Origin: Actinomycetota bacterium
GTDB taxonomy: Bacteria; Actinomycetota; Thermoleophilia; Solirubrobacterales; Solirubrobacteraceae
Assembly (NCBI GenBank): GCA_005788585.1
Contig: SYBY01000335.1
Coordinates: 1-9,505 of the forward strand
Direction: 5' to 3'
DNA length: 9,505 nt
The notes below the pieces were generated by a model. It saw only the letters and a list, made by a program, of their open reading frames with translations, made no database searches and was not told where the DNA came from. The first letter of the stretch is position 1. Each line of letters opens with the position of its first letter. Positions 1 to 9,505 of the stretch are shown here, piece after piece. The position numbers and the translations under genes were made by a program.

Positions 1-247
1 CCACGGCCAGCGCCAGGCGCCCCCGGCGGTCAGCGCCACCGAGCACGACGACGCCCCGCGGCGCCGCGGTGACCTTCGGTTTCACCCCCTTCGCGCCGGT
101 GCCGAGCAGTACAGCGGCGGATCCGGCCTCGGGCGCGGGGGTCGAGAGCGTGCCGGCGGCCGCGGGGGCGGCGGGCAGCACGAGGGTGCAGGCCGCGGCG
201 GCGAGGGCCGCGCGGCGCAGGTGGGAGGAACGGCGGAAGGTCGACAT
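1..247 (-). CDS. Secreted or membrane-anchored protein of unknown function (N-terminal part)
   Basis: The gene runs off the left edge of the window, leaving 82 codons from an ATG at 247-245. The N-terminus is a textbook export signal: a positively charged stretch (RRSSHLRR, residues 5-12), an alanine/leucine-rich hydrophobic core (about 13-25), and a small-residue cleavage region ending AAPAAAG near residue 31. The mature part that follows is low in complexity at first and then reads GVVVLGGADRRGRLALAV, which I cannot assign to a family. A cysteine at residue 20 sits inside the hydrophobic core, but the hydrophobic stretch continues past it, so cleavage as a lipoprotein is less likely than cleavage by signal peptidase I. 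There is no Shine-Dalgarno sequence; the start is supported by a -10 box six bases upstream (see 254-259). It lies 46 bp downstream of the Lrp gene on the same strand. Confidence 0.7.
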   Translation of the reverse strand, partial: MSTFRRSSHLRRAALAAAACTLVLPAAPAAAGTLSTPAPEAGSAAVLLGTGAKGVKPKVTAAPRGVVVLGGADRRGRLALAV

Positions 248-253
248 ACCCCG

Positions 254-259
254 AACGTA
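254..259 (-). promoter_or_regulatory. -10 element of a leaderless promoter for the secreted-protein gene
   Basis: On the minus strand the sequence reads TACGTT, then six bases (CGGGGT), then the ATG at 247. TACGTT fits the actinobacterial TANNNT -10 pattern, and the spacing puts the transcription start at or beside the A of the ATG. No good -35 is visible 16 to 18 bp upstream. The ten bases aacgtacgcc (254-263 on the plus strand) recur at exactly the same distance from the lrp start codon. Confidence 0.5.
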
Positions 260-293
260 CGCCTGAACCGGGGCGCCGCCATCGGGGAGTCCC

Positions 294-740
294 CTAAACC
301 CCCACCCCAGAGTCGCGCGACCACCGAGCGAGGACCATGAGGGTCTTCGTCCCGGTCACCTTGCCGCTGCGCCGCAGCGCGTTGACGACCTGCTGCAGGT
401 GCGCGACGTCGTCGACGCGCAGGCGAAGCAGCACGTCGGGGTCGCCGGCGATGGTGAAGATCTCCTGGACCTCGGGGATGGCCGAGGCGATCTCGACGAC
501 CTCGGCCGCGTCGATGCTGCCGACGATCCGCACCTCGGAGAACGCGTCCAGGGACGGGCCGACCTTGCTGTGGTCGAGCACGACGGTGTAGCCCGCGATG
601 ACGCCGTCGCGCTCCATGCGCTCGATCCGGCGGGCGACAGGCGCGGGCGACAGGCTGACGCGCGCGGCGATGTCGGTGACGGTGCGGCGTGCGTCCTCGC
701 GCAGCAGATCGAGGATCTGCTCGTCGATGGCGTCGAGCAT
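294..740 (-). CDS. Lrp/AsnC-family transcriptional regulator
   Basis: This is a 148-residue DNA-binding regulator of the feast/famine (Lrp/AsnC) family, whose members are usually about 150 aa and respond to amino acids or related metabolites. The N-terminus LDAIDEQILDLLREDAR is the family's first helix. The helix-turn-helix spans about residues 20-41 (TVTDIAARVSLSPAPVARRI). A hinge (GVIAGYTVVLD, 46-56) leads into the RAM ligand-binding domain (about 67-137), which carries the family's GDPDVLL effector-site motif at 99-105. The frame stays open upstream to 809, but residues before the methionine at 740 do not look like the family, and a promoter 6 bp before this ATG makes 740 the start of a leaderless message. 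It is divergent from the indolepyruvate oxidoreductase gene (132 bp between starts), so it is the natural candidate to control that gene and itself. The effector is unknown. Confidence 0.93.
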   Translation of the reverse strand: MLDAIDEQILDLLREDARRTVTDIAARVSLSPAPVARRIERMERDGVIAGYTVVLDHSKVGPSLDAFSEVRIVGSIDAAEVVEIASAIPEVQEIFTIAGDPDVLLRLRVDDVAHLQQVVNALRRSGKVTGTKTLMVLARWSRDSGVGV

Positions 741-746
741 GCCTTC

Positions 747-775
747 AACGTACGCCGACCGTGCCGACGGCGCAA
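747..775 (-). promoter_or_regulatory. Leaderless promoter of the lrp-family gene
   Basis: Read on the minus strand: TTGCGC at 775-770 (the -35 box, sharing TTG with the consensus), a 17-bp spacer, TACGTT at 752-747 (the -10 box, fitting TANNNT), six bases, then ATG at 740. The spacing is ideal for a housekeeping sigma factor, and transcription would begin at about the ATG, so the message needs no ribosome binding site. The same -10 box and 6-bp gap precede the secreted-protein gene at 247. Confidence 0.6.
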
Positions 776-812
776 GATTCATGCGCGTGGTGGCAGGATC
801 ACTGCGCACGGA

Positions 813-841
813 TTGCGCGGGTGGGCGGCGCGGCGGACAGT
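813..841 (+). promoter_or_regulatory. Possible promoter of the indolepyruvate oxidoreductase operon
   Basis: TTGCGC (813-818), identical to the -35 proposed for the divergent lrp gene, is followed after 17 bp by GACAGT (836-841), a poor -10 (three matches to TATAAT). The predicted transcription start near 848 would leave a leader of about 25 nt containing the ribosome binding site. The weak -10 would fit an activator-dependent promoter, but this is only a candidate. Confidence 0.25.
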
Positions 842-853
842 CCTGAGCAGGAC
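840..853. promoter_or_regulatory. Inverted repeat upstream of the oxidoreductase gene (candidate operator)
   Basis: GTCCTG-AG-CAGGAC is a perfect 6-bp inverted repeat with a 2-bp centre, ending 19 bp before the oxidoreductase start codon and overlapping the predicted transcription start. Its size suits a dimeric regulator such as the neighbouring Lrp protein, but it does not closely follow the enterobacterial Lrp consensus. It could also be a small hairpin in the mRNA leader. Confidence 0.35.
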
Positions 854-859
854 CTCGAC

Positions 860-866
860 AGGGGAG
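860..866 (+). promoter_or_regulatory. Ribosome binding site fixing the oxidoreductase start
   Basis: AGGGGAG lies six bases before the ATG at 873. It selects this start over the long open frame that extends upstream to 399 across the antisense lrp gene. Confidence 0.75.
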
Positions 867-872
867 CTCGGG

Positions 873-3800
873 ATGTACCGCGACGTGAGTCTCCAGGACA
901 AGTTCGCCGCCACCGCCGGCGCGGTCCTGCTGTCCGGCGTGCAGTCCCTCGTGCGCACGACGCTGGACCAGCGCCGCCTCGATCGCGCCGCGGGCCTGAA
1001 CACCGCCGCGTACGTGTCCGGCTACCAGGGCTCACCGCTGGGCGGGGTGGAGCGCGAGATGGGACGCGCGGCGACCGAGCGGGAGGACCTCGGTGTCGTC
1101 TTCGCCCAGGGCGTCAACGAGGAGCTTGCCGCCACCGCGGTCGCAGGGACGCAGCTGCTCGGCGAGGTCGAGGGACGGCGCCATGACGGCGTCACCGGCT
1201 ACTGGTTCGGCAAGGCGCCCGGGCTCGACCGCGCCGCCGACGCGATCCGCCACGCGAACGTCAGCGGCACCCACCCGCTGGGCGGCGCCGTCGCGTGGAT
1301 CGGCGACGACCCGTCGGCCAAGTCGTCATCGGTGCCCAGCTCGTCCGAGCCGCTCTGCCGCAGCCTGCATCTCCCGGTGCTCGCACCCGGCACGGTGCAG
1401 GAGGTCCTGGACTTCGGGCTGCACGCGGTCGGGCTCTCGCGCCATGCGGGGACGTGGGCGGCGCTGAAGGTCGTGGCCGACATCGCCGACGCGACGTCGA
1501 CTGTCGAGGTGGGCGGCGTGACGATCCCCGAACTCGAACCGCGCACGGACTTCACGCCCGCGACGATGCTCCCGCCGACGAACCTCGTCGCCGAGCACGA
1601 CCTCATGGTCGAGCGCCTCGCGCGCGCGACCGCCTACGCGCGTGCCGCCGGCCTCAACCGGATCGTCGTCGAACCCCGCCGGCCGCGCGTCGCCGTGGTC
1701 GCCGCGGGCGTCGGCTTCCAGTCGGTGCTGCGCGCGGTCGACGACCTCCGGCTCGACCTCGACGCGCTCGGCGTGCGCCTCGTGCAACTCGGCATGCCCT
1801 GGCCGCTGGACCGCGGCGAGCTGCGCCGACTGCTCGCCGGCGTCGAGACCGTCCTCGTCGTGGAGGACAAGCTCCCGTTCGTCGAGACGCTCGTGAAGGA
1901 GGCGCTGTACCGGGCTCCGGACGCGCCGCTGGTCCTGGGCAAGGAGGACGCCGACGGCCGGGAGCTGCTCTCCCCACGTAGCGCCCTCGGTGCCGACGAC
2001 GTCGCCCGCGCGCTGGGCCGCATCCTGCCCTCCGACGAGCTCGGGGAGGAGACCCGGGCGCGGCTGGCGCTGCTCGACCGCGCAGCAGCCGCCGTGCCCG
2101 GCGTCGCGCCGCTGGCACAGCGCACGCCGTACTTCTGCTCGGGCTGCCCGCACAGCACGTCGACGCGTGCCGAGCCGGACCAGCTCGTGGGTGTCGGGAT
2201 CGGCTGCCACATCATGGTCGTCCTGGATGCCCCCGGCCGGCGCGGCCAGCTCCTCGGGATGCCGCAGATGGGCGGCGAGGGCGCGCAGTGGCTCGGCCTC
2301 ATGCCGTTCACCGACGACGAGCACTTCATCCAGAACATCGGCGACGGCACGTTCTTCCACTCGGGGTCCCTCGCGATCCGCGCGGCGATCGCCGCGGGCG
2401 CGACGATGACGTTCCGGCTCCTGCACAACGACGTCGTCGCGATGACGGGCGGGCAGACACCGGCCGGCCAGATGGACATCCCCGCGCTGACCCGCTGGCT
2501 CGAGGTCGAGGGCGTGCGGCAGACCGTCATCACCACGCCGGAGCCCGACGGCTACCGCGGGGTGTCGCTCGCCGCGAACGCGTCGGTGCGGTCGCGGGAC
2601 GATCTCGCCGACGTCCAGCGCGAGCTCACCGCCGCCGGCGGGGTGACCGTGCTGCTGCACGACGACCAGTGCGCGACGGAGAAGCGGCGGCTGCGCAAGC
2701 GCGGGAAGCTCGCGGCACCCAGGGAGCGAGTCGTCATCAACGAACGGGTGTGCGAGGGCTGCGGCGACTGCGGCGACACGTCGTCGTGCCTGTCGGTGCA
2801 GCCGGTGGAGACCGAGTTCGGGCGAAAGACGAAGATCCACCAGTCGTCGTGCAACCAGGACTTCAGCTGCACGGACGGGGACTGTCCTTCGTTCCTCATG
2901 GTGACGCCCGCCGAGGGCGCGCACCGCGCCGAGACCCCTCTGGCGCCCGCGGTTCCGGCACCGACCGTGCGCGTCGGCACCGACGTGACCGTCCGCATGC
3001 CCGGCGTCGGCGGTACGGGCGTCGTGACGCTCTCCCAGATCCTGGAGATGGCGGCGCACATCGAGGGGCGCCACACCGCGGGGGTCGAGCAGATCGGCCT
3101 GGCGCAGAAGGGCGGGCCGGTGCTCAGCGACCTGCGCATCTCGGTTGCGCCGATCACCGGGCAGCTGCGCGCGACGGCCGCGAGTGTCGACGTCCTGCTC
3201 GGGCTCGACGCGCTGGGCGCGGCCGCCCCGGCAACGCTCGCGGTGTGCGACCCCGCGCGCACGATGGCCGTGGTGAACACCGCCGACGTCCCGACGGCGG
3301 CGATGGTGACCGACGCACGCGTCCCGTTCTCGCACGCCGACCGCGCGGTGCGCCGGGTGCGCGGCGCCACCCGTGAGCTGCACACCCTCGACGCGCTGGC
3401 CCTGAGCGAGCGCCTCTTCGGCGACCACATGCCCGCGAACATGCTCCTCGTCGGCGCCGCGTTCCAGCACGGCCTGCTCCCGCTCAGCGAGCTGGCGATC
3501 GAGCGTGCCATCGCCCTGAACGGCGCCGCCGTCGAGACGTCGCTGGCAGCGTTCCGCTGGGGCCGCGCGGCCGCCGCCGACCCGGCCGCGGTGACGGCGG
3601 CACTCGCACCACCGCCGCCGCCCGAGCCCGCCCCGCTGCAGCCGGCGCTGCGCGACCAGCTCGACGGGCGCGCCGTCACCGGCGAGCTGCGCCGCCTGCT
3701 CGACATCCGTCTCGCCGAGCTCATCGACTACCAGGACCCGGCGCTCGCCGGGGACTACCTGCGCGACGTCCTGCGGGTGCTCGCCACCGAGCGGCTGCGG

Positions 3801-4370
3801 ACCCCCGGGTCGACGCTCGTCACCGAGGCGTACAGCCGCGGGCTCTTCAAGCTCCTGGCGGCGAAGGACGAGTACGAGGTCGCGCGGCTGCACGCGGCGT
3901 CGGTGCCCGCCGGCGCCGAGCGGGTCGAGATCCTCCTGCACCCGCCCGTCCTGCGCGCGCTCGGTCTCCGCCGCAAGCTCCACCTCAACGGCCGCTGGGC
4001 GTTCCCGATGCTGCGGCTTCTCGCGCGCGGCAAGCGGCTGCGGGGCACGCCGCTCGATCCCTTCGGCCGCGCGAAGGTCCGCCGGGTCGAGCGCGCACTG
4101 CCCGGCGAGTACCGCGACCTCGTCGACGCCGCGCTCGCGCAGCTGCGGTTCGACACCGCGCCGTGGGTCATCGAGATCGCCGGGCTCCCGGACCTGATCC
4201 GCGGCTACGAGGACATCAAGCTGCGCAACGTCGAGCTGTTCCGCGAGCGCGCCGCGGCGCTGCTGGCCGCGCCGCCGGCGGCCCCGTCGATCTCGATCGT
4301 GCGGTCCACCCCGGCGGCCGGTACGGTCGAGCCCGGGTGGACACGCTCAACGCCAGCTCCCAGAGCCTGA
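873..4370 (+). CDS. Indolepyruvate ferredoxin oxidoreductase family protein (fused alpha-gamma form with DUF6537 tail)
   Basis: This is a 1165-residue cytoplasmic, thiamine-diphosphate and iron-sulfur enzyme of the fused IOR family (usually about 1150 to 1200 aa), expected to oxidise aryl-pyruvates such as indolepyruvate or phenylpyruvate to the acyl-CoA with ferredoxin-type reduction. Visible order: an N-terminal pyrimidine-binding domain (GYQGSPLGG near 50); a transketolase C-like domain (VVEDKLPF near 329-336); SGCPH around C425; the ThDP-binding GDG at 490-492 with HND at 518-520; a seven-cysteine cluster (C627, C630, C633, C639, C660, C666, C671) matching this family; the IorB-like gamma domain starting at GVGGTG (711-716); and the DUF6537 tail (YQD at 953). 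A strong ribosome binding site supports the start. It is divergent from an Lrp regulator and overlaps the TRIC gene by 34 nt. The family is certain; the exact 2-oxoacid is inferred. Confidence 0.94.
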   Translation: MYRDVSLQDKFAATAGAVLLSGVQSLVRTTLDQRRLDRAAGLNTAAYVSGYQGSPLGGVEREMGRAATEREDLGVVFAQGVNEELAATAVAGTQLLGEVEGRRHDGVTGYWFGKAPGLDRAADAIRHANVSGTHPLGGAVAWIGDDPSAKSSSVPSSSEPLCRSLHLPVLAPGTVQEVLDFGLHAVGLSRHAGTWAALKVVADIADATSTVEVGGVTIPELEPRTDFTPATMLPPTNLVAEHDLMVERLARATAYARAAGLNRIVVEPRRPRVAVVAAGVGFQSVLRAVDDLRLDLDALGVRLVQLGMPWPLDRGELRRLLAGVETVLVVEDKLPFVETLVKEALYRAPDAPLVLGKEDADGRELLSPRSALGADDVARALGRILPSDELGEETRARLALLDRAAAAVPGVAPLAQRTPYFCSGCPHSTSTRAEPDQLVGVGIGCHIMVVLDAPGRRGQLLGMPQMGGEGAQWLGLMPFTDDEHFIQNIGDGTFFHSGSLAIRAAIAAGATMTFRLLHNDVVAMTGGQTPAGQMDIPALTRWLEVEGVRQTVITTPEPDGYRGVSLAANASVRSRDDLADVQRELTAAGGVTVLLHDDQCATEKRRLRKRGKLAAPRERVVINERVCEGCGDCGDTSSCLSVQPVETEFGRKTKIHQSSCNQDFSCTDGDCPSFLMVTPAEGAHRAETPLAPAVPAPTVRVGTDVTVRMPGVGGTGVVTLSQILEMAAHIEGRHTAGVEQIGLAQKGGPVLSDLRISVAPITGQLRATAASVDVLLGLDALGAAAPATLAVCDPARTMAVVNTADVPTAAMVTDARVPFSHADRAVRRVRGATRELHTLDALALSERLFGDHMPANMLLVGAAFQHGLLPLSELAIERAIALNGAAVETSLAAFRWGRAAAADPAAVTAALAPPPPPEPAPLQPALRDQLDGRAVTGELRRLLDIRLAELIDYQDPALAGDYLRDVLRVLATERLRTPGSTLVTEAYSRGLFKLLAAKDEYEVARLHAASVPAGAERVEILLHPPVLRALGLRRKLHLNGRWAFPMLRLLARGKRLRGTPLDPFGRAKVRRVERALPGEYRDLVDAALAQLRFDTAPWVIEIAGLPDLIRGYEDIKLRNVELFRERAAALLAAPPAAPSISIVRSTPAAGTVEPGWTRSTPAPRA

Positions 4371-4969
4371 TCGACGTCCTCGAGGTCGCCGGGACGATCG
4401 CGTTCGCGGTCTCCGGCGCGATGGCCGCCACCCGGCACCAGCTCGACTGGTTCGGCGTCGTGGTCCTCGGCGTGATCGTCGCGGTGGGCGGCGGGACGAT
4501 CCGCGCGCTGCTGCTCGGCGACCCGGCGGGATGGATCGAGGACTGGTGGCCCGTCGCGGTGGGGGCGGCGTCGGCCGCCGCGGTCATCCCGCTGAGCCGG
4601 TGGGTGGGCACGGAGTTCGACTCCTGGAACTCCGTGCTGAGCGCCGACGCCGTCGGGCTGGCGGTCTTCACCGTGGTCGGCGCCGACGCCGCGCTGGACG
4701 CGGGCGCCCCGGCCGGCGTGGCCGTGGTCCTCGGCGTCGTGTCCGGCATCGCGGGCGGCATCCTGCGCGACGTGCTCGTCGGCGATCAGCCCGCCGTGTT
4801 CACGGGTCAGATCTACGCGCTGGCGGCAGCGGTCGGCGGGGTGCTGTACGTCGCGCTGCTGCGCACGGAGGTGGACCCGACGCTGGCGCTTTGGGCGCCG
4901 ATCGCGGTCATCTTCGGGCTGCGGATGGTGGCGCTGCGGCGGGACTGGTCGGTGCCGAAAGTGTCGTAG
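4337..4969 (+). CDS. TRIC/UPF0126 family membrane channel protein (YadS-like)
   Basis: This is a 210-residue integral membrane protein of the trimeric intracellular cation channel (UPF0126/YadS) family, normally about 200 to 210 aa. It has the family's two internal repeats of three membrane helices. Repeat 1 starts LIDVLEVAGTIAFAVSGAMAA and carries the glycine-rich motif VGGGTIRA (50-57); repeat 2 starts SADAVGLAVFTVVGADAAL and carries GIAGGILRD (137-145). The first motif has Ala57 where relatives such as YadS usually have Asp (GGGTIRD). The start is a GTG inside the end of the oxidoreductase gene (34-nt overlap), chosen because the family N-terminus begins just after it; no clear ribosome binding site is seen, so translational coupling is likely. 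The last codons (WSVPKVS, stop) overlap the left copy of a 16-bp direct repeat, so this C-terminus was probably rewritten by an insertion. The link to oxidoreductase function is unknown. Confidence 0.9.
   Translation: MDTLNASSQSLIDVLEVAGTIAFAVSGAMAATRHQLDWFGVVVLGVIVAVGGGTIRALLLGDPAGWIEDWWPVAVGAASAAAVIPLSRWVGTEFDSWNSVLSADAVGLAVFTVVGADAALDAGAPAGVAVVLGVVSGIAGGILRDVLVGDQPAVFTGQIYALAAAVGGVLYVALLRTEVDPTLALWAPIAVIFGLRMVALRRDWSVPKVS
4944..4959 (+). repeat. Left copy of the 16-bp direct repeat (attachment-like site)
   Basis: actggtcggtgccgaa lies in the final codons of the TRIC gene, ten bases before its last base. An identical copy is at 6830-6845. The left copy continues agtgtcgtag and the right copy ggactcttag; both give an in-frame tag stop at the same distance. 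Confidence 0.8.
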
Positions 4970-4971
4970 TG

Positions 4972-4990
4972 CGGCAACGATGCGTTGCCG
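4972..4990 (+). terminator. Hairpin after the oxidoreductase-TRIC operon
   Basis: CGGCAACG-ATG-CGTTGCCG is a perfect 8-bp stem with a 3-nt loop, starting two bases after the TRIC stop codon. It is followed by TTCAGTG, not a proper T-run, so termination would be weak or factor-assisted. A second, smaller inverted repeat (TCAGTG/CACTGA, 4992-4997 and 5005-5010) follows directly. Because it lies just inside the left repeat, it may belong to the inserted block instead. Confidence 0.45.
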
Positions 4991-5108
4991 TTCAGTGCGA
5001 ACGTCACTGAGCCGAGAAGCGGTGCACTCGGACGGCAGACCGTGGCCGTTTTGCCAGGAGCACGCGCCGACTCGGCGAAGACTGCGCAGTGCAGGAACGC
5101 CTTCGTTG

Positions 5109-5134
5109 TGAACTCTGCCCGGCCGCGCTGTGTC
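5109..5134 (+). promoter_or_regulatory. Possible ECF-type promoter of the sigma/membrane-protein pair
   Basis: TGAAC (5109-5113), 17 bp, TGTC (5131-5134) resembles the GAAC...GTC layout of many ECF sigma promoters and lies 31 bp before the sigma start codon. This would allow autoregulation, which is common for such sigma factors. The 196-bp gap before the sigma gene (4970-5165) otherwise holds only the hairpins and the palindrome listed here. Confidence 0.3.
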
Positions 5135-5140
5135 ACAGCG
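5126..5140. promoter_or_regulatory. 15-bp perfect palindrome upstream of the sigma gene (candidate operator)
   Basis: CGCTGTG-T-CACAGCG has 7-bp arms around a single central base. It overlaps the proposed -10 and transcription start, 25 bp before the sigma start codon, where a repressor would act. It is not a CRP/FNR site, since the half-sites are one base apart rather than six. As RNA it could not form a normal hairpin without opening at least one pair. Confidence 0.4.
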
Positions 5141-5165
5141 ACAGCCGTGAAGGCAAGTACAGGTT

Positions 5166-5744
5166 GTGAATATCCAACCAAGCCGCTTGAGGCGCTCGCG
5201 CGGTGTACTCACCCGCGATGGGGCGTTCGATGCGTTGTACGAGCAAGAGGCACGGGCCCTCTTGCGCTTCTTTGCCCGCCGTGTGTGGGACGCCCAGACC
5301 GCACTCGACCTCACTGCGGAGACGTTCGCGGCCGCATACGCGTCGCGCCGGTCCTGTCGAGCCGAAACGATCGACGACGCGGTGCACTGGCTCTACGGCA
5401 TTGCCCGCCATGAACTGTCGCGCTTCTTCCGCCGCGGGCGTGTCGAGCACCGCGCGCTAGAGCGTCTGGCGATAGACCTACCTGTCGCCGATGATCAAGA
5501 ACTGCGCCGCGTTGAGGACGTCGCCGACCTCCCCGCACTCCGTGCGGACCTCTCGCGGGCGATCGACACGCTGCCGGCCAGTCAGCGCGACGCCGTGCTG
5601 CTGAAGGTGGTGCACGAACTCTCCTACCCGGAGGTCGCCGCACGTCTGCAAGTCACAGAGCCCAACGCCCGCGCTCGTGTTTCGCGAGGTCTACGCACGC
5701 TCGCATCCTCGCCAGTCCTCGCGCATCTGATGGAGACCCGATGA
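5166..5744 (+). CDS. ECF-like RNA polymerase sigma factor (sigma-70 family)
   Basis: This is a 192-residue protein with the two-domain layout of extracytoplasmic-function sigma factors. Region 2 spans about residues 20-92: a LYEQEARALLRFFARRV helix, LDLTAETFAAAYA at 47-59, and the WLYGIARHELSRFFRR promoter-melting helix at 75-90. A linker follows, then region 4 at about 130-181, with LPASQRDAVLLKVVHELSYPEVAARL and the recognition helix EPNARARVSRGLRTL. It should direct RNA polymerase to a small regulon. The start is a GTG; a GAAGG lies 12 bases upstream, rather far, so the start is somewhat uncertain, but there is no better in-frame start before region 2. The stop overlaps the next gene by four bases (ATGA). 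Base composition is lower in G+C than the flanking genes. Target genes cannot be deduced beyond possible self-control. Confidence 0.88.
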   Translation: MNIQPSRLRRSRGVLTRDGAFDALYEQEARALLRFFARRVWDAQTALDLTAETFAAAYASRRSCRAETIDDAVHWLYGIARHELSRFFRRGRVEHRALERLAIDLPVADDQELRRVEDVADLPALRADLSRAIDTLPASQRDAVLLKVVHELSYPEVAARLQVTEPNARARVSRGLRTLASSPVLAHLMETR

Positions 5745-6418
5745 GCCACGACGACTTCCAGGACCTTCCCACGCTGCGCCGCCTTCGCCAGGAGCTGCAG
5801 CAACACGAGCGCTCGCCGCACCGACGGCGCCGACCACGATGGCCACTGGCAGCTGTCGCGCTGGCGGTAGCAGTCGGCGCCGGCGGCACCGTCGCCGCTA
5901 CCCAGCTCATCGAGCAGGGCGCCCCGGTCCCTGGCGCCGAGCGAAGCGACTTTGACCGCAAGGATCTCCCCGAGCCGGGAACCAGCATGTTGGACGGGCT
6001 GCGTGTAGCTGACCCAGATGGGAGCCTGCCATGGGCCTTGCGCCTGGCGACCAGCGAGACCGGACAGACGTGCTACACGCCCGGCCAGGTGCGGGGCAAC
6101 GAGCTCGGCCGGGTCCGTGACGGCGCGTTCTCGGCTTTGCCAGAGGTCGGCCCGCAGCTCTGCGGGGACCCGAGCGGCGAACCATTGTTGTTAGCGGTGC
6201 GTGAGGCCCCGACGGGCGACATCGACCGCACACTCGTCTTCGGGATCGTGGGCGATCAGGTCAGCGCGGTCGACCTGCGCGTCGATGGACAGACCCGGAG
6301 GCTCCCGATCAGCGACCGGGGCGCGTATCTCGCTGTCCTACCTCCAACGGTGTCGGCCCGGGGGATGGAGGTCACAGCACTTGACGGCACCAGAGTGGTT
6401 CGACGCATGAAGTTGTGA
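5741..6418 (+). CDS. Single-pass membrane protein coupled to the sigma factor (candidate anti-sigma or sensor partner)
   Basis: This 225-residue protein starts in a four-base ATGA overlap with the sigma gene, so the two are made together. Layout: a short charged cytoplasmic segment with a coiled helix (LPTLRRLRQELQQHE, 9-23); an arginine cluster (RRRRPRW, 28-34); one membrane helix (about 35-54, PLAAVALAVAVGAGGTVAAT); then an outside domain of about 170 residues with two cysteines (C111, C141) and a beta-rich C-terminal part (LVFGIVGDQVSAVDLRVDG). The position and topology suggest an anti-sigma factor or signal sensor, but the cytoplasmic part has no HxxxCxxC zinc-binding motif and is short for a sigma-binding domain, so this is inference. 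Leucines 149-151 are coded TTG-TTG-TTA, unusual for this G+C-rich genome. A remnant of a related gene follows. I recognise no named family. Confidence 0.75.
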   Translation: MSHDDFQDLPTLRRLRQELQQHERSPHRRRRPRWPLAAVALAVAVGAGGTVAATQLIEQGAPVPGAERSDFDRKDLPEPGTSMLDGLRVADPDGSLPWALRLATSETGQTCYTPGQVRGNELGRVRDGAFSALPEVGPQLCGDPSGEPLLLAVREAPTGDIDRTLVFGIVGDQVSAVDLRVDGQTRRLPISDRGAYLAVLPPTVSARGMEVTALDGTRVVRRMKL

Positions 6419-6474
6419 CACATGTTCGACGGGACGCAGACGAGCGTGGATCTCCCGTGACATGAGGTGTCTGA

Positions 6475-6738
6475 GCGGTAGATCTTCGGCCGCCCAACAG
6501 GTTTGGGCAGGGGGCCTGCCGGTATCAGGGACGGATCGTCATCTACGGGATCGCCGGACCAGACGTCCTCTCCGCGAGCATCGGCGGACAGGAGGTCGCG
6601 GTCGACAGCCGCGAGCGCGGTTTCATGCGGGTGGTAGCCGGCGAGCCCGATGAGCTGAAGAGCTACCCGATTGAGCTGCGTCTGCGCAACGGGACCACGT
6701 ACGTGACCCCCTGGACGGGGCCGTCCACCATCCGGTAG
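6475..6738 (+). pseudogene. 3' remnant of a second copy of the membrane-partner gene
   Basis: Between the stop at 6472-6474 and the stop at 6736-6738 the frame encodes a segment clearly related to the C-terminal domain of the preceding protein: GRIVIYGIAGPDVLSASIGG here against RTLVFGIVGDQVSAVDLRVDG there, followed in both by a GxxxxxV-type turn and a final NGTTYV/DGTRVV strand. A cysteine precedes it (GACRYQGR), as in the intact gene. There is no ATG, GTG or TTG before an internal ATG at 6625, and the export and membrane segments are missing, so it looks like the 3' end of a truncated paralogue. None of the three forward frames between 6419 and 6475 restores an N-terminus. Alternatively it is the leftover of an older copy replaced by the intact one. 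Confidence 0.6.
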
Positions 6739-6744
6739 TCCAGA

Positions 6745-6783
6745 GCGTGCTCTCCGCGTCCTCGTAGGGCGCGGGAAGCACGC
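6745..6783. terminator. Long imperfect hairpin between convergent transcription units
   Basis: The outer stem GCGTGCT/AGCACGC (6745-6751 with 6777-6783) is perfect over 7 bp. After one C-A mismatch it continues as a 9-bp stem (6753-6761 with 6767-6775, two G-U pairs) closed by a 5-nt loop. It starts six bases after the remnant's stop and lies 68 bp beyond the stop of the convergent GAP gene, so it could terminate both. There is no T-run on either side, a form often seen in G+C-rich actinobacteria. Confidence 0.45.
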
Positions 6784-6829
6784 GACGGAATAGCTCGCAG
6801 TCGTCAGGCTAGAGACGGTGGAGACGCGT

Positions 6830-6845
6830 ACTGGTCGGTGCCGAA
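6830..6845 (+). repeat. Right copy of the 16-bp direct repeat (displaced TRIC gene tail)
   Basis: This is identical to 4944-4959. Read in the TRIC frame from 6832 it encodes WSVPKDS and a TAG at 6853-6855, against WSVPKVS and TAG in the intact gene. The TAG overlaps the stop codon of the convergent GAP gene (6852-6854), as a compact ancestral tail-to-tail junction would. Similarity does not extend leftward of 6830. Confidence 0.75.
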
Positions 6846-6851
6846 GGACTC

Positions 6852-7526
6852 TTAGAGGAGCACGGAGATCGCGTCGCCGATGAGCTTGGCCCCGATGACC
6901 AGCATCAGCACGGTCATGATCGCCGCGTTGTGCGCCGCGAGCCAGTGCTTGAGGTCCTCCAGGATGGACGCCGCCCGCTCCCCCATGCCGAAGTAGACCC
7001 CGACCGGCACCGCGGGACCGATCGTCCCCAGGATCACGAAGGCGAGAAGCGCGAGCTCCTGGTCGAGGGTGTCGATCCCGGTCTGCGCGATCGCGGCAGC
7101 CGCACCGACGGTCAGCACGAGGTTCTTCGGGTTCGCCGCCGAAAGCAGCACGCCCATGCCCGCGGCCTTGGGCGCCGCAAAGCCGTCGGCCTTGCTCATC
7201 CAGCCGGGCATCTCCGGCTCGGTGTCGCCCCGCGGCCGGGCCCGCCACGTGCGGATCGCGAGGTGGACGAGCAGCGCGCCGAGGACCAGCCGCAACCATC
7301 CGGTCCACGTCGCCGGACCGCCGTCGTCACTCGCCCCCGCGCCGCCGGCGACCAGCAGCACCACGGTCCCGAGGACCAGGAGCCCCGCGAACCACCCGAC
7401 CAGGAAGGCCGGCCCGTTCACGTGCGCGCGCGGGGTCCCGAGCATCACCACGACCGCGATGATCGGGATCGGGCTGAGCGTCACGCCGATCGCGAACGGC
7501 AGCATCTGACCGATGGCGTCGCCCAT
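6852..7526 (-). CDS. GAP/Sap-family (LysE-superfamily) membrane protein
   Basis: This 224-residue protein has about six membrane helices and the features of the GAP (glycopeptidolipid/sulfolipid-addressing, SfLAP) family, a branch of the LysE export superfamily. The N-terminus GQMLPFAIGVTLSPIPIIAVV contains the family's proline-rich LSPIPI turn (18-23). TPRAHVNGPAFLVGWFAGL (31-49) leads into helix 2. A hydrophilic loop (94-120) precedes SAANPKNLVL (129-138), the second conserved proline motif, and GAKLIGDAI near the end (212-220) is also typical. In mycobacteria relatives help export cell-envelope lipids; the substrate here is unknown and other small solutes are possible. The start ATG has GGGAGC ten bases upstream. 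It follows cydC by 20 bp on the same strand, so it is probably the last gene of the cydDC operon. The stop overlaps the displaced TRIC tail. Confidence 0.88.
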   Translation of the reverse strand: MGDAIGQMLPFAIGVTLSPIPIIAVVVMLGTPRAHVNGPAFLVGWFAGLLVLGTVVLLVAGGAGASDDGGPATWTGWLRLVLGALLVHLAIRTWRARPRGDTEPEMPGWMSKADGFAAPKAAGMGVLLSAANPKNLVLTVGAAAAIAQTGIDTLDQELALLAFVILGTIGPAVPVGVYFGMGERAASILEDLKHWLAAHNAAIMTVLMLVIGAKLIGDAISVLL

Positions 7527-7546
7527 GGCGGCGGATGCTCCCAGGC

Positions 7547-9190
7547 TCAGGCGAGCTGGACGACCTCGTCGCAGCGCGCGAGGCCCTCGCCACGGTGCGT
7601 GATGAGCAGCACCGCGCGGTCGTCTGCCGCGTCGAACGCGTCCTCGATCACGCGATGCGCGGTGTCGTCGTCGAGATGGGCGGTGGGCTCGTCGAGCACG
7701 AGCACGGGCGCGTCGGCGAGCAGCGCGCGGGCCAGCGCGATGCGCTGGCGCTGCCCACCTGAGAGCTCGGTGCCCTCCTCGCCGACCATGGTGTCGAGCC
7801 CGTCGGGGAGCTCGTCGATCCAGTCGCCCAGTCCGGCGGCGTCGACCGCGGCGCGCAGCTGGTCCTCGGTCGCGTCCGGACGGGCGAGGCGCACGTTCTC
7901 CCGGATGTTCGAGTTGAAGAGATGCGCGTCCTGGCCGCAGACGGCGACGTGGCGGCGGACGTCGGCCAGGGTGAAGTCCCGCAGGTCAGCGCCCGCGAGG
8001 GTGATCCTCCCGCGCTCGGGATCCATGAAGCGCAGCAGCAGATTGACCGCCGTCGTCTTGCCCGACCCGGACGGGCCGCGCAGCGCGACCTTCCGGCCGG
8101 GGGCCAGGCGCAGATCGAGACCGTCGAGCGCCAGCGGCTCGTCCGGCGCGTACCGCGCGCGGACGTCGGCGAAGACGAGCTCGGCGTCGCGCGGCGGTGC
8201 GGGCAGCGGGTCGTCGGGGTCGCGCACGGCGGGTTCGCGGTCGGTGAGCTCGAGGATGCGCCGTCCTGCGGCGACCACGCCGGACAGCCGCCGGGCGGCC
8301 TCGGCGAGCGGCTGGGTGCCCTCGAAGGACGCGAGCGCGAGCAGCGTCAGCATCGCGATGAGGACGCGGTCGAGGTTCGACGCGTCGTGCGCGGCGACGG
8401 CGACCGCCGCCACGAGGGCCACCGTGACGCCGGTGACCAGGATGCCCAGCGCGTCGCCGAGGCCCGCGACCCACGCGTCGCGACGCGCGACGCGGTCGAG
8501 GTCGCGGTCGGCCGCGGCGATCCGCTCCTCGCGCCCGGCCGCGGCCCCGAAGGCGACGAGCTCGGGCGCGGCACGCAACGTCTCGACGAGCTCGGCGCTC
8601 AGCGCGGCGCGCGCAGCGGCCTGGCGCCGGCCGGCGCTGCGGTTCAGCCGGCCCGCGAGTGCGGGCACCATGAGACCCTGGACCAACAGCCCGGCCGCCA
8701 GGACGACCGCCGCCAGCGGCAGGAAGATCGCCGCGGCGATCACGGCGACGACCCCGGCCGCCAGCGCGATGAACGGCGGCAGGAGCCCGCGCAGGTAGAG
8801 GTCCTGCAGCGCGTCGACGTCGGCGACCATCCGGCTGAGGAGGTCGCCGCGGCGGAAGCTCGCCAGGCCGGCGGGTGCGAGCGGCTCGATGCGGGAGTAG
8901 AGCCGGGAGCGCAGGGTGCCGAGCGTGCGGAACGCGACGTCGTGGGACGTCAGGCGCTCGAGGTAGCGCGTCAGCGGGCGGGCCACGCCGAAGAACCGCA
9001 CGAAGACGATCGCGATCGTCAGCGAGAGGACCGGCGGCTGCTCGGCCGCGCGGCTGATGAGGTACCCGGAGACCGCCATGAGCCCGATCCCGCAGATCAC
9101 GGCGAGCGCGCCGAGCGTGATGGCGAGCGCCAGACGCTTGCGCGGCGCCTCGGCCAGAGCCAGCAGACGGCGCAGGGTGTCGTTCCTCAC
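7547..9190 (-). CDS. cydC: Thiol reductant ABC exporter subunit CydC
   Basis: This is a 547-residue half-transporter with a membrane domain (about 1-320, six helices) and a C-terminal ATPase. It pairs with CydD in the inner membrane; the complex is known for exporting cysteine and glutathione and is needed to assemble cytochrome bd oxidase, with haem handling also proposed. CydC-specific sequence includes SGYLISRAAEQPP near 41-53 and RPLTRYLERLTSHDVAFR near 71-88. ATPase motifs are all intact: Walker A GPSGSGKTT (372-380), signature LSGGQ (476-480), Walker B with D500 and E501, and the switch histidine H532. The start is GTG, with GAGGTGG seven bases upstream, and it overlaps the cydD stop by four bases (GTGA), showing coupled translation. 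No cydA or cydB is inside the window; they would be expected further right. Confidence 0.95.
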   Translation of the reverse strand: MRNDTLRRLLALAEAPRKRLALAITLGALAVICGIGLMAVSGYLISRAAEQPPVLSLTIAIVFVRFFGVARPLTRYLERLTSHDVAFRTLGTLRSRLYSRIEPLAPAGLASFRRGDLLSRMVADVDALQDLYLRGLLPPFIALAAGVVAVIAAAIFLPLAAVVLAAGLLVQGLMVPALAGRLNRSAGRRQAAARAALSAELVETLRAAPELVAFGAAAGREERIAAADRDLDRVARRDAWVAGLGDALGILVTGVTVALVAAVAVAAHDASNLDRVLIAMLTLLALASFEGTQPLAEAARRLSGVVAAGRRILELTDREPAVRDPDDPLPAPPRDAELVFADVRARYAPDEPLALDGLDLRLAPGRKVALRGPSGSGKTTAVNLLLRFMDPERGRITLAGADLRDFTLADVRRHVAVCGQDAHLFNSNIRENVRLARPDATEDQLRAAVDAAGLGDWIDELPDGLDTMVGEEGTELSGGQRQRIALARALLADAPVLVLDEPTAHLDDDTAHRVIEDAFDAADDRAVLLITHRGEGLARCDEVVQLA

Positions 9191-9505
9191 CGGGTCACCA
9201 CCTCATCCACCTCGAACACGCCGTCGGCGAGCGCGACGATGCGATCCATGCCGCGGGTCACGTCACGGTCGTGGGCGATGAGCAGCACGGTGCGATCCCG
9301 CGGCAGGCGCCGCACGGCGTCGGCCACGACGGCCGCGCTCTCGGCGTCGAGGTTCGCCGTGGGCTCGTCGAGGATCAGCAGGGGCGTGTCCCGCGCGAGC
9401 GCGCGTGCGAGGGCCAGGCGCTGCGACTGCCCCGCCGACAGCGCGCGGCCGCCCTCGCCCACGACGGTGTCGTAGCCGTCGGGCAGCGCGCGGATGAACT
9501 CGTCG
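9187..9505 (-). CDS. cydD: Thiol reductant ABC exporter subunit CydD (C-terminal part)
   Basis: Only the last 105 codons lie in the window; the rest continues past the right edge. The fragment is the end of an ABC ATPase: DEFIRALPDGYDTVVGEGG before the signature, LSAGQ (9441-9427) in place of the usual LSGGQ, Walker B LLILDEPTANLD, a D-loop, and the switch histidine in LLIAHDRD. A signature with alanine is common in CydD and supports this assignment over a second CydC. It is directly upstream of cydC with a four-base stop/start overlap, the standard cydDC order. The membrane domain and Walker A are not visible. Confidence 0.88.
   Translation of the reverse strand, partial: DEFIRALPDGYDTVVGEGGRALSAGQSQRLALARALARDTPLLILDEPTANLDAESAAVVADAVRRLPRDRTVLLIAHDRDVTRGMDRIVALADGVFEVDEVVTR

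What the first reader, a model, noticed from the sequence alone, without database searches (positions are those of the whole stretch)
4944..6845. Sigma-factor cassette apparently integrated into the 3' end of a TRIC channel gene, restoring its reading frame
A perfect 16-bp direct repeat (actggtcggtgccgaa) occurs in the last codons of the TRIC gene and again 1886 bp away, right against the convergent GAP gene. The far copy still reads WSVPKDS-stop in the TRIC frame, and its stop overlaps the GAP stop. The near copy reads WSVPKVS-stop, so the incoming DNA supplied a new tail of the same length. The block between is lower in G+C and carries a signalling pair plus a gene remnant. This is the architecture of site-specific integration at a gene's 3' end, but the target is a membrane-protein gene rather than a tRNA and no integrase is present, so it may be an undescribed passive cassette or the remains of a larger element.
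Basis: partly seen in the sequence, partly recalled or inferred. Interest (0 to 1): 0.8.

Follow-up and report, generated by a model that had tools for sequence, protein, structure and literature searches.

The report
Integrase-less insertion in TRIC gene end
A small foreign DNA block carrying a sigma-factor switch has slotted into the very end of a membrane-channel gene and given that gene back its last codons, as mobile islands do, but it is very short and carries no recognisable integrase of its own.

Summary
A perfect 16-bp repeat (4944-4959, 6830-6845) bounds an 1886-bp block between the TRIC channel gene and a convergent SfLAP/GAP gene. The nearest relative (L001, 93.7% nt identity upstream) and the outgroup Svornostia abyssi (L002) lack the block. 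In L001 TRIC ends DWSVPKVS-stop, its stop overlapping the SfLAP stop as the window's far copy does. So this is a real insertion at a gene end.

One correction: the tail in both relatives is WSVPKVS. The insert restores exactly those residues with three other third-position bases than L001; the far copy's D is best read as later decay.

The cargo is an ECF sigma gene, a membrane anti-sigma-like gene and a frameshifted scrap resembling that family's second outer domain. It has foreign codon usage (GC3 0.75-0.79 against 0.95-0.97 in five neighbours) and a family promoter element. No recombinase was found in the ORFs scanned.

Best reading: an integrase-less, att-bounded remnant resembling a CIME, placed by an unknown site-specific integrase. 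Integration at protein-gene 3' ends is well known, so the kind is known; the target and minimal size look new. Parent element and integrase were not found.

The parts
4337..4969 (+). TRIC cation channel gene (target), ends DWSVPKVS-stop
   Evidence: Pfam PF03458 E 7.2e-38; 98% identical to P0123, named TRIC cation channel family protein by NCBI
4944..4959 (+). near copy of the 16-bp core (attL-like); lies over the W(S/A)(V/I/L)P motif shared by the nine homologues read at 57-60% identity
   Evidence: motif
4960..4969 (+). element-supplied replacement tail: completes KVS-stop with three third-position differences from L001
4972..4990 (+). perfect 8-bp hairpin CGGCAACG-ATG-CGTTGCCG just after the restored TRIC stop; candidate replacement terminator, no T run
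   Evidence: the 71-nt stretch around it does not fold unusually well, z -1.47, 14 of 200 shuffles as stable
5131..5137 (+). TGTCACA, candidate -35 element of the sigma promoter
   Evidence: GTCACA upstream of sigma in 36 of 43 hits (window included) against a shuffled mean of 1.59
5166..5744 (+). ECF-type sigma factor gene (192 aa)
   Evidence: Sigma70_r4_2 9.2e-14 and r2 7.5e-8; TIGR02937 8.5e-19
5741..6418 (+). anti-sigma-like membrane protein gene (225 aa): short N-terminal helix, one likely transmembrane helix, one extracytoplasmic beta domain
   Evidence: relatives paired with sigma; model mean pLDDT 81.4, but only 51-67 over residues 31-60 with the transmembrane helix; sub-cutoff NCBIfam anti-sigma hit 6.6e-5
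6478..6738 (+). degenerate, out-of-frame remnant resembling a second extracytoplasmic domain of the same family
   Evidence: profile match only; plain BLASTP gave nothing significant
6745..6783 (+). strong hairpin after the remnant, candidate cassette terminator
   Evidence: z -4.06, 0 of 200 shuffles as stable
6830..6845 (+). far copy of the 16-bp core (attR-like)
6846..6855 (+). displaced original TRIC tail (GGACTCTTAG), one change from the L001 tail
6852..7526 (-). SfLAP/GAP-type membrane protein gene; its stop overlaps the displaced TRIC stop as in L001
   Evidence: PF11139 2e-45; L001 6630-7304

Best explanation
The block 4960-6845 is a small integrated element without a recombinase of its own. 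Shown: two relatives have an uninterrupted TRIC-SfLAP junction; the window has one core at each end of the insert; TRIC keeps its full protein because the insert brings a codon-variant copy of the last codons; the original-type tail now lies 1886 bp away and differs at one base. Inferred: a site-specific recombinase, most simply a tyrosine integrase, recombined a circle carrying a 16-bp-plus attP with the attB in the 3' end of TRIC; the integrase gene was later lost by internal deletion, or was never in the circle and acted in trans. The cargo is a regulatory module: the ECF sigma probably drives its own promoter (TGTCACA type) and is held by a one-pass membrane anti-sigma whose outer domain senses a signal. 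Compared with the usual family operon (sigma, two-domain anti-sigma, often a further protein with the same domain) it is cut short, which fits a decaying CIME-like remnant.
For: Empty site in L001 and L002; L001 is closer to the window than L002 in TRIC (35 against 76 of 630 nt differ), so one gain is simpler than two losses. Perfect 16-bp repeat exactly at the boundaries. Tail restored as KVS-stop; analytic chance about 3e-5, and besides the real one a single other 10-mer of 19,000 in the window does this. The exact tail WSVPKVS-stop was seen only in the window, L001 and L002; the nine homologues read at 57-60% identity end otherwise, as do the 14 distant loci read. Foreign codon usage, the largest GC3 deficit of 43 sigma hits. 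No relative of the anti-sigma in G001 or G002. No recombinase among the ORFs scanned. Operon shortened relative to most relatives.
Against: No integrase, parent element or second insertion at this site was found: core in viral contigs and in 151 genomes, anti-sigma in phages and plasmids, both proteins in viral contigs, left-end DNA in 399 class genomes with only two candidates scored per genome. Metagenome contigs could not be scanned. In relatives the sigma/anti-sigma pairs are not flanked by long repeats more often than controls (1 of 36 against 24 of 552 at 16 bp or more), so the pair itself is not a recognised mobile unit. TRIC ends of 14 of 16 distant loci showed no repeat above 12 bp. 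One-domain anti-sigma forms occur in 10 of 42 full ORFs, so the short anti-sigma need not be decay.
Confidence: 0.62

Rival explanations
1. A passive cassette moved in trans: a naturally small circle carrying attP, sigma and anti-sigma is integrated and excised by an integrase encoded elsewhere in the genome, and has never had its own.
For: Complete att-like ends, own promoter element and terminator-like hairpin, intact sigma ORF and a one-domain anti-sigma like 10 of 42 relatives. The near relatives hold tyrosine recombinases: 4 PF00589 matches in G001, 13 in G002 (some are presumably XerC/XerD).
Against: No second copy or related cassette at a TRIC end found; relatives' pairs lack long flanking repeats; the out-of-frame remnant suggests decay.
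Confidence: 0.17
2. Homologous (Campbell-type) or microhomology insertion: a circular or linear foreign DNA that happened to carry a TRIC 3' end from a related species recombined through the short shared stretch without a site-specific recombinase.
For: The near tail differs from L001 only at third positions, as a TRIC end from another lineage would; a single crossover of a circle leaves the same direct repeat.
Against: Shared identity is only 16 bp (79% over 33 nt), short for RecA by general knowledge; nothing of a donor TRIC beyond the tail was recognised in the insert.
Confidence: 0.13
3. The block is ancestral and was lost precisely in L001 and L002 by recombination between the repeats.
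For: Direct repeats allow precise loss.
Against: Needs two losses (L002 is the outgroup); the cargo has strongly foreign codon usage; it still needs an earlier insertion to make the repeats.
Confidence: 0.05
4. Assembly artefact joining TRIC, an unrelated fragment and SfLAP.
For: No genome is held for the window, so reads and coverage cannot be checked; the one protein cluster matching the window's sigma (P0003) is listed on a single contig of 1004 bp.
Against: Both joins are biologically exact (frame kept, stop overlap kept); a 16-nt overlap is shorter than usual assembly k-mers (general knowledge).
Confidence: 0.03

Closest known systems
CIME (cis-mobilizable element), a decayed ICE/IME that keeps attL and attR
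   Same: Two att-like repeats bound cargo without integration or transfer genes (definition read in passages of PMC5704250)
   Different: Only 1.9 kb; no parental ICE/IME or neighbouring active element known; the target is a TRIC gene
Genomic islands at 3' ends of protein-coding genes (TIGER/Islander class; streptococcal ICEs in rplL, rpsI, lysS, rpmG, guaA)
   Same: Empty site in relatives, identity block, target gene regenerated by the island (whole text of PMC12424338; start of abstract of PMC4383910 in the listing; passages of PMC4701971)
   Different: No integrase found and below the 2-kbp floor, so excluded by the rules of that survey
SCCmec and pseudo-SCC elements in rlmH/orfX (recalled, no call)
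   Same: Short repeats at a coding gene's 3' end, tail restored, recombinase-free derivatives exist (recalled)
   Different: Different host, target and cargo; no homology tested
ECF41 sigma factors
   Same: TGTCACA-type -35 element (PMC3426412 passages)
   Different: No C-terminal regulatory extension detected, no CGTC -10 word, and an anti-sigma-like partner is present

Membership tests
CIME | attL and attR retained as flanking repeats | tested here: met
   16-bp core at both ends, empty site in two relatives; that these are true att sites is inferred
CIME | no integration or transfer genes | tested here: met
   Pfam and PHROGs scans of the main ORFs of the block, both strands, show only sigma-factor matches above chance
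CIME | derived by decay from an ICE or IME | tested here: inconclusive
   Operon shortened but no parent element found
CIME | mobilised in cis after accretion of another element | not testable with these tools
   Needs reads or bench work
TIGER/Islander genomic island | precise empty site in relatives | tested here: met
TIGER/Islander genomic island | encodes an integrase | tested here: not met
TIGER/Islander genomic island | length 2 to 200 kbp | tested here: not met
   1886 bp; limits
Transposon / insertion sequence | terminal inverted repeats and transposase | tested here: not met
   No inverted repeat of 12 nt or more joins the two ends, no transposase match
Integron cassette | attC site and integron integrase recombination point | not tested
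   Not scanned with a model
ECF41 sigma | TGTCACA -35 element | tested here: met
   5131-5137 (consensus)
ECF41 sigma | CGTC -10 element 16 +/- 1 bp downstream | tested here: not met
   No CGTC between 5138 and the sigma start
ECF41 sigma | fused C-terminal regulatory domain, no anti-sigma | tested here: not met
   192 aa, region 4 match ends at residue 179; anti-sigma-like partner present

The most novel reading that the evidence does not exclude
A class of passive cassettes under 2 kb, each with att ends and a self-contained sigma/anti-sigma switch, is inserted at conserved gene 3' ends by integrases supplied in trans. Such cassettes would be invisible to the large island survey read here, which demands an integrase and at least 2 kbp.
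Probability: 0.14. Interest if true: 0.65.

Novelty: new member of a known kind. Interest (0 to 1): 0.4.

Why it matters
It is a clean case of how a foreign transcription switch can enter a chromosome without harming the gene it hits: the insert carries the target's own last codons. It points to a TRIC 3' end as an integration site, a target I did not see named in the listing of one paper search (8 of 73 papers shown, with loosely matching terms). It also shows a blind spot, because the large island survey read here requires an integrase and excludes islands under 2 kbp. The cargo family, a sigma with an anti-sigma-like protein bearing repeated outer beta domains, is multicopy in relatives of S. 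abyssi and, as far as I saw, uncharacterised.

Tried and rejected
Core in viral contigs: 14 stretches matched a 19-nt degenerate core pattern, none with element-like flanks; they look like chance matches in phage-type sequence. Core in relatives: 9 of 151 genomes have the 16-mer; only the G001 hit is at TRIC. The other eight lie inside coding sequence that I recognised, from recalled motifs only, as peptide-permease and geranylgeranyl-reductase-like genes; G002 carries a one-base variant of the core at its TRIC.

Sigma and anti-sigma in mobile DNA: tblastn of the anti-sigma against phages and plasmids gave no match; IMG/VR gave no confirmed relative of either protein. The protein search gave 2 weak anti-sigma homologues. 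For sigma, 120 of 1961 matches were listed, the best non-self one 59% identical; P0003 equals the window's own gene from a later start.

Is the pair a mobile unit everywhere? 36 same-strand pairs in 40 loci (the window not among them): longest flanking repeats 10-18 bp, none found in 2; 1 of 36 reached 16 bp against 24 of 552 control positions. Rejected as a general rule.

Full report
What is there. The window (no genome held) is a GC-rich segment. Its nearest match is L001, a Solirubrobacteraceae MAG with 93.7% nt identity across 1-4969 and 92.0% across 6825-9505; L002, Svornostia abyssi J379, has 87.6% across 18-4965. Gene order is an Lrp/AsnC-type regulator, a POR/DUF6537 oxidoreductase gene (indolepyruvate-type by recall), TRIC (4337-4969), the block, SfLAP/GAP (6852-7526, reverse) and ABC-exporter-like ORFs recognised by eye.

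The repeat. ACTGGTCGGTGCCGAA is present at 4944-4959 and 6830-6845 and nowhere else in the window, even with three mismatches. It extends at 79% identity to 33 nt. Repeat length by itself is not decisive in such genomes: 24 of 552 control positions had a flanking exact repeat of at least 16 bp within 1 kb.

The empty site. In L001, TRIC runs ...GCGACTGGTCGGTGCCGAAGGTCTCTTAG and goes straight into the SfLAP gene, the two stops overlapping. The window's far copy reads ...GTACTGGTCGGTGCCGAAGGACTCTTAG with the same overlap, so it is best read as the displaced original end with one T-to-A change. L002 is also uninterrupted. L001 differs from the window at 35 of 630 TRIC positions and L002 at 76, so L002 is the outgroup and one gain is the simplest history.

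The restored tail. After the core, the near copy reads AAA GTG TCG TAG where L001 has AAG GTC TCT TAG: three codons, three third-position changes, same residues. A random 10-mer does this with probability about 3e-5; in the window only the real one and one other of 19,000 do. The nine TRIC homologues read at 57-60% identity share the W(S/A)(V/I/L)P motif under the core but end differently, and more distant TRIC proteins mostly lack it. The exact tail was therefore seen only in this genus-level group, and the incoming DNA matched it.

The cargo. The ECF sigma gene (5166-5744) overlaps by 4 nt an anti-sigma-like gene (5741-6418): a short N-terminal helix, one likely transmembrane helix (35-58, locally low confidence) and a beta domain (83-224) in a model of mean pLDDT 81.4. 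Anti-sigma function is inferred from pairing, topology and a sub-cutoff NCBIfam hit. Relatives of the anti-sigma were found in 37 of 151 genomes, up to 12 matches per genome, and none in G001 or G002. In 40 loci taken out, 36 same-strand sigma/anti-sigma pairs were found. There, 32 of 42 full anti-sigma ORFs carry a second outer domain and 10 do not; 30 further ORFs match the profile, 25 of them ending just downstream of a same-strand full anti-sigma ORF. The window's remnant (6478-6738) matches the second-domain profile (E 7.5e-7 in a one-sequence search) better than the downstream-ORF profile (1.7e-5), although plain BLASTP sees nothing. It lies in another frame, and by my count starts about 32 residues after domain one instead of the usual 47-88 (one outlier 282). 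So the operon looks shortened and partly decayed.

Promoter. GTCACA lies upstream of 36 of 43 sigma hits (window and one near-duplicate pair included; starts extrapolated from the alignment), against a mean of 1.59 and a maximum of 6 in 200 mononucleotide shuffles. In the window it is TGTCACA at 5131-5137. The same -35 word is reported for ECF41, but the -10 word and the C-terminal extension of ECF41 are missing here.

Foreign origin. GC3 is 0.745 for sigma and 0.791 for the anti-sigma against 0.946-0.971 for five neighbouring genes. Codon fit, trained on two of those five genes, is -1.37 to -1.38 against -0.69 to -0.76. Among 43 sigma hits the window's has the largest GC3 deficit relative to its neighbours (0.199; next 0.073; median -0.033), using a rough ORF-based estimate of neighbours. 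Against a sharp edge: G+C stays low for 355 bases to the right of the insert, in L001 too.

What moved it. No recombinase is encoded among the ORFs of the block scanned on both strands. No related element was found in the collections searched; metagenome contigs could not be scanned. TRIC ends of 14 of 16 distant loci (two gave no alignment, some with short downstream stretches) carry no repeat above 12 bp. The exact empty site, the shared core and the regenerated gene end are the marks used for island mapping (start of the abstract of PMC4383910 in the listing; whole text of PMC12424338). Protein-coding targets are common: 43.4% of mapped islands and 30 of 73 streptococcal tyrosine-integrase elements at housekeeping 3' ends (passages). 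Elements that kept attL and attR but lost integration and transfer genes are called CIMEs (passages). I therefore place it as a CIME-like remnant with moderate confidence; a trans-mobilised passive cassette and a Campbell-type insertion stay open.

Verdict. A real, precise insertion with a known logic. Apparently new are the target and the very small, integrase-free form, which the large survey would skip because it demands an integrase and at least 2 kbp. Interest is moderate.

Noticed in passing
window 5131-5137 and loci L066-L105: GTCACA is conserved upstream of 36 of 43 sigma hits of this family, a probable family-wide -35 element resembling that of ECF41.
   Followed up: partly
loci L066-L105: Multicopy sigma/anti-sigma operons (anti-sigma relatives in 37 of 151 genomes, up to 12 matches each) whose anti-sigma and downstream proteins repeat a beta outer domain; two cysteines are invariant in 35 aligned sequences, and the window's member has no confident Pfam match.
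   Followed up: partly
L002 7305-8999: In Svornostia abyssi a reverse-strand gene that looks like a SulP-type transporter (recognised by eye, no family search run) lies between SfLAP and the ABC exporter gene; it is not at this place in the window or L001.
   Followed up: no
window 6411-6422: A second TGTGTCACA word lies on the reverse strand at the end of the anti-sigma gene, in an imperfect inverted copy (6403-6422) of the promoter region at 5129-5148; possibly chance.
   Followed up: no
window 6745-6783: Very stable hairpin after the remnant (z -4.06), a likely terminator inside the insert.
   Followed up: partly
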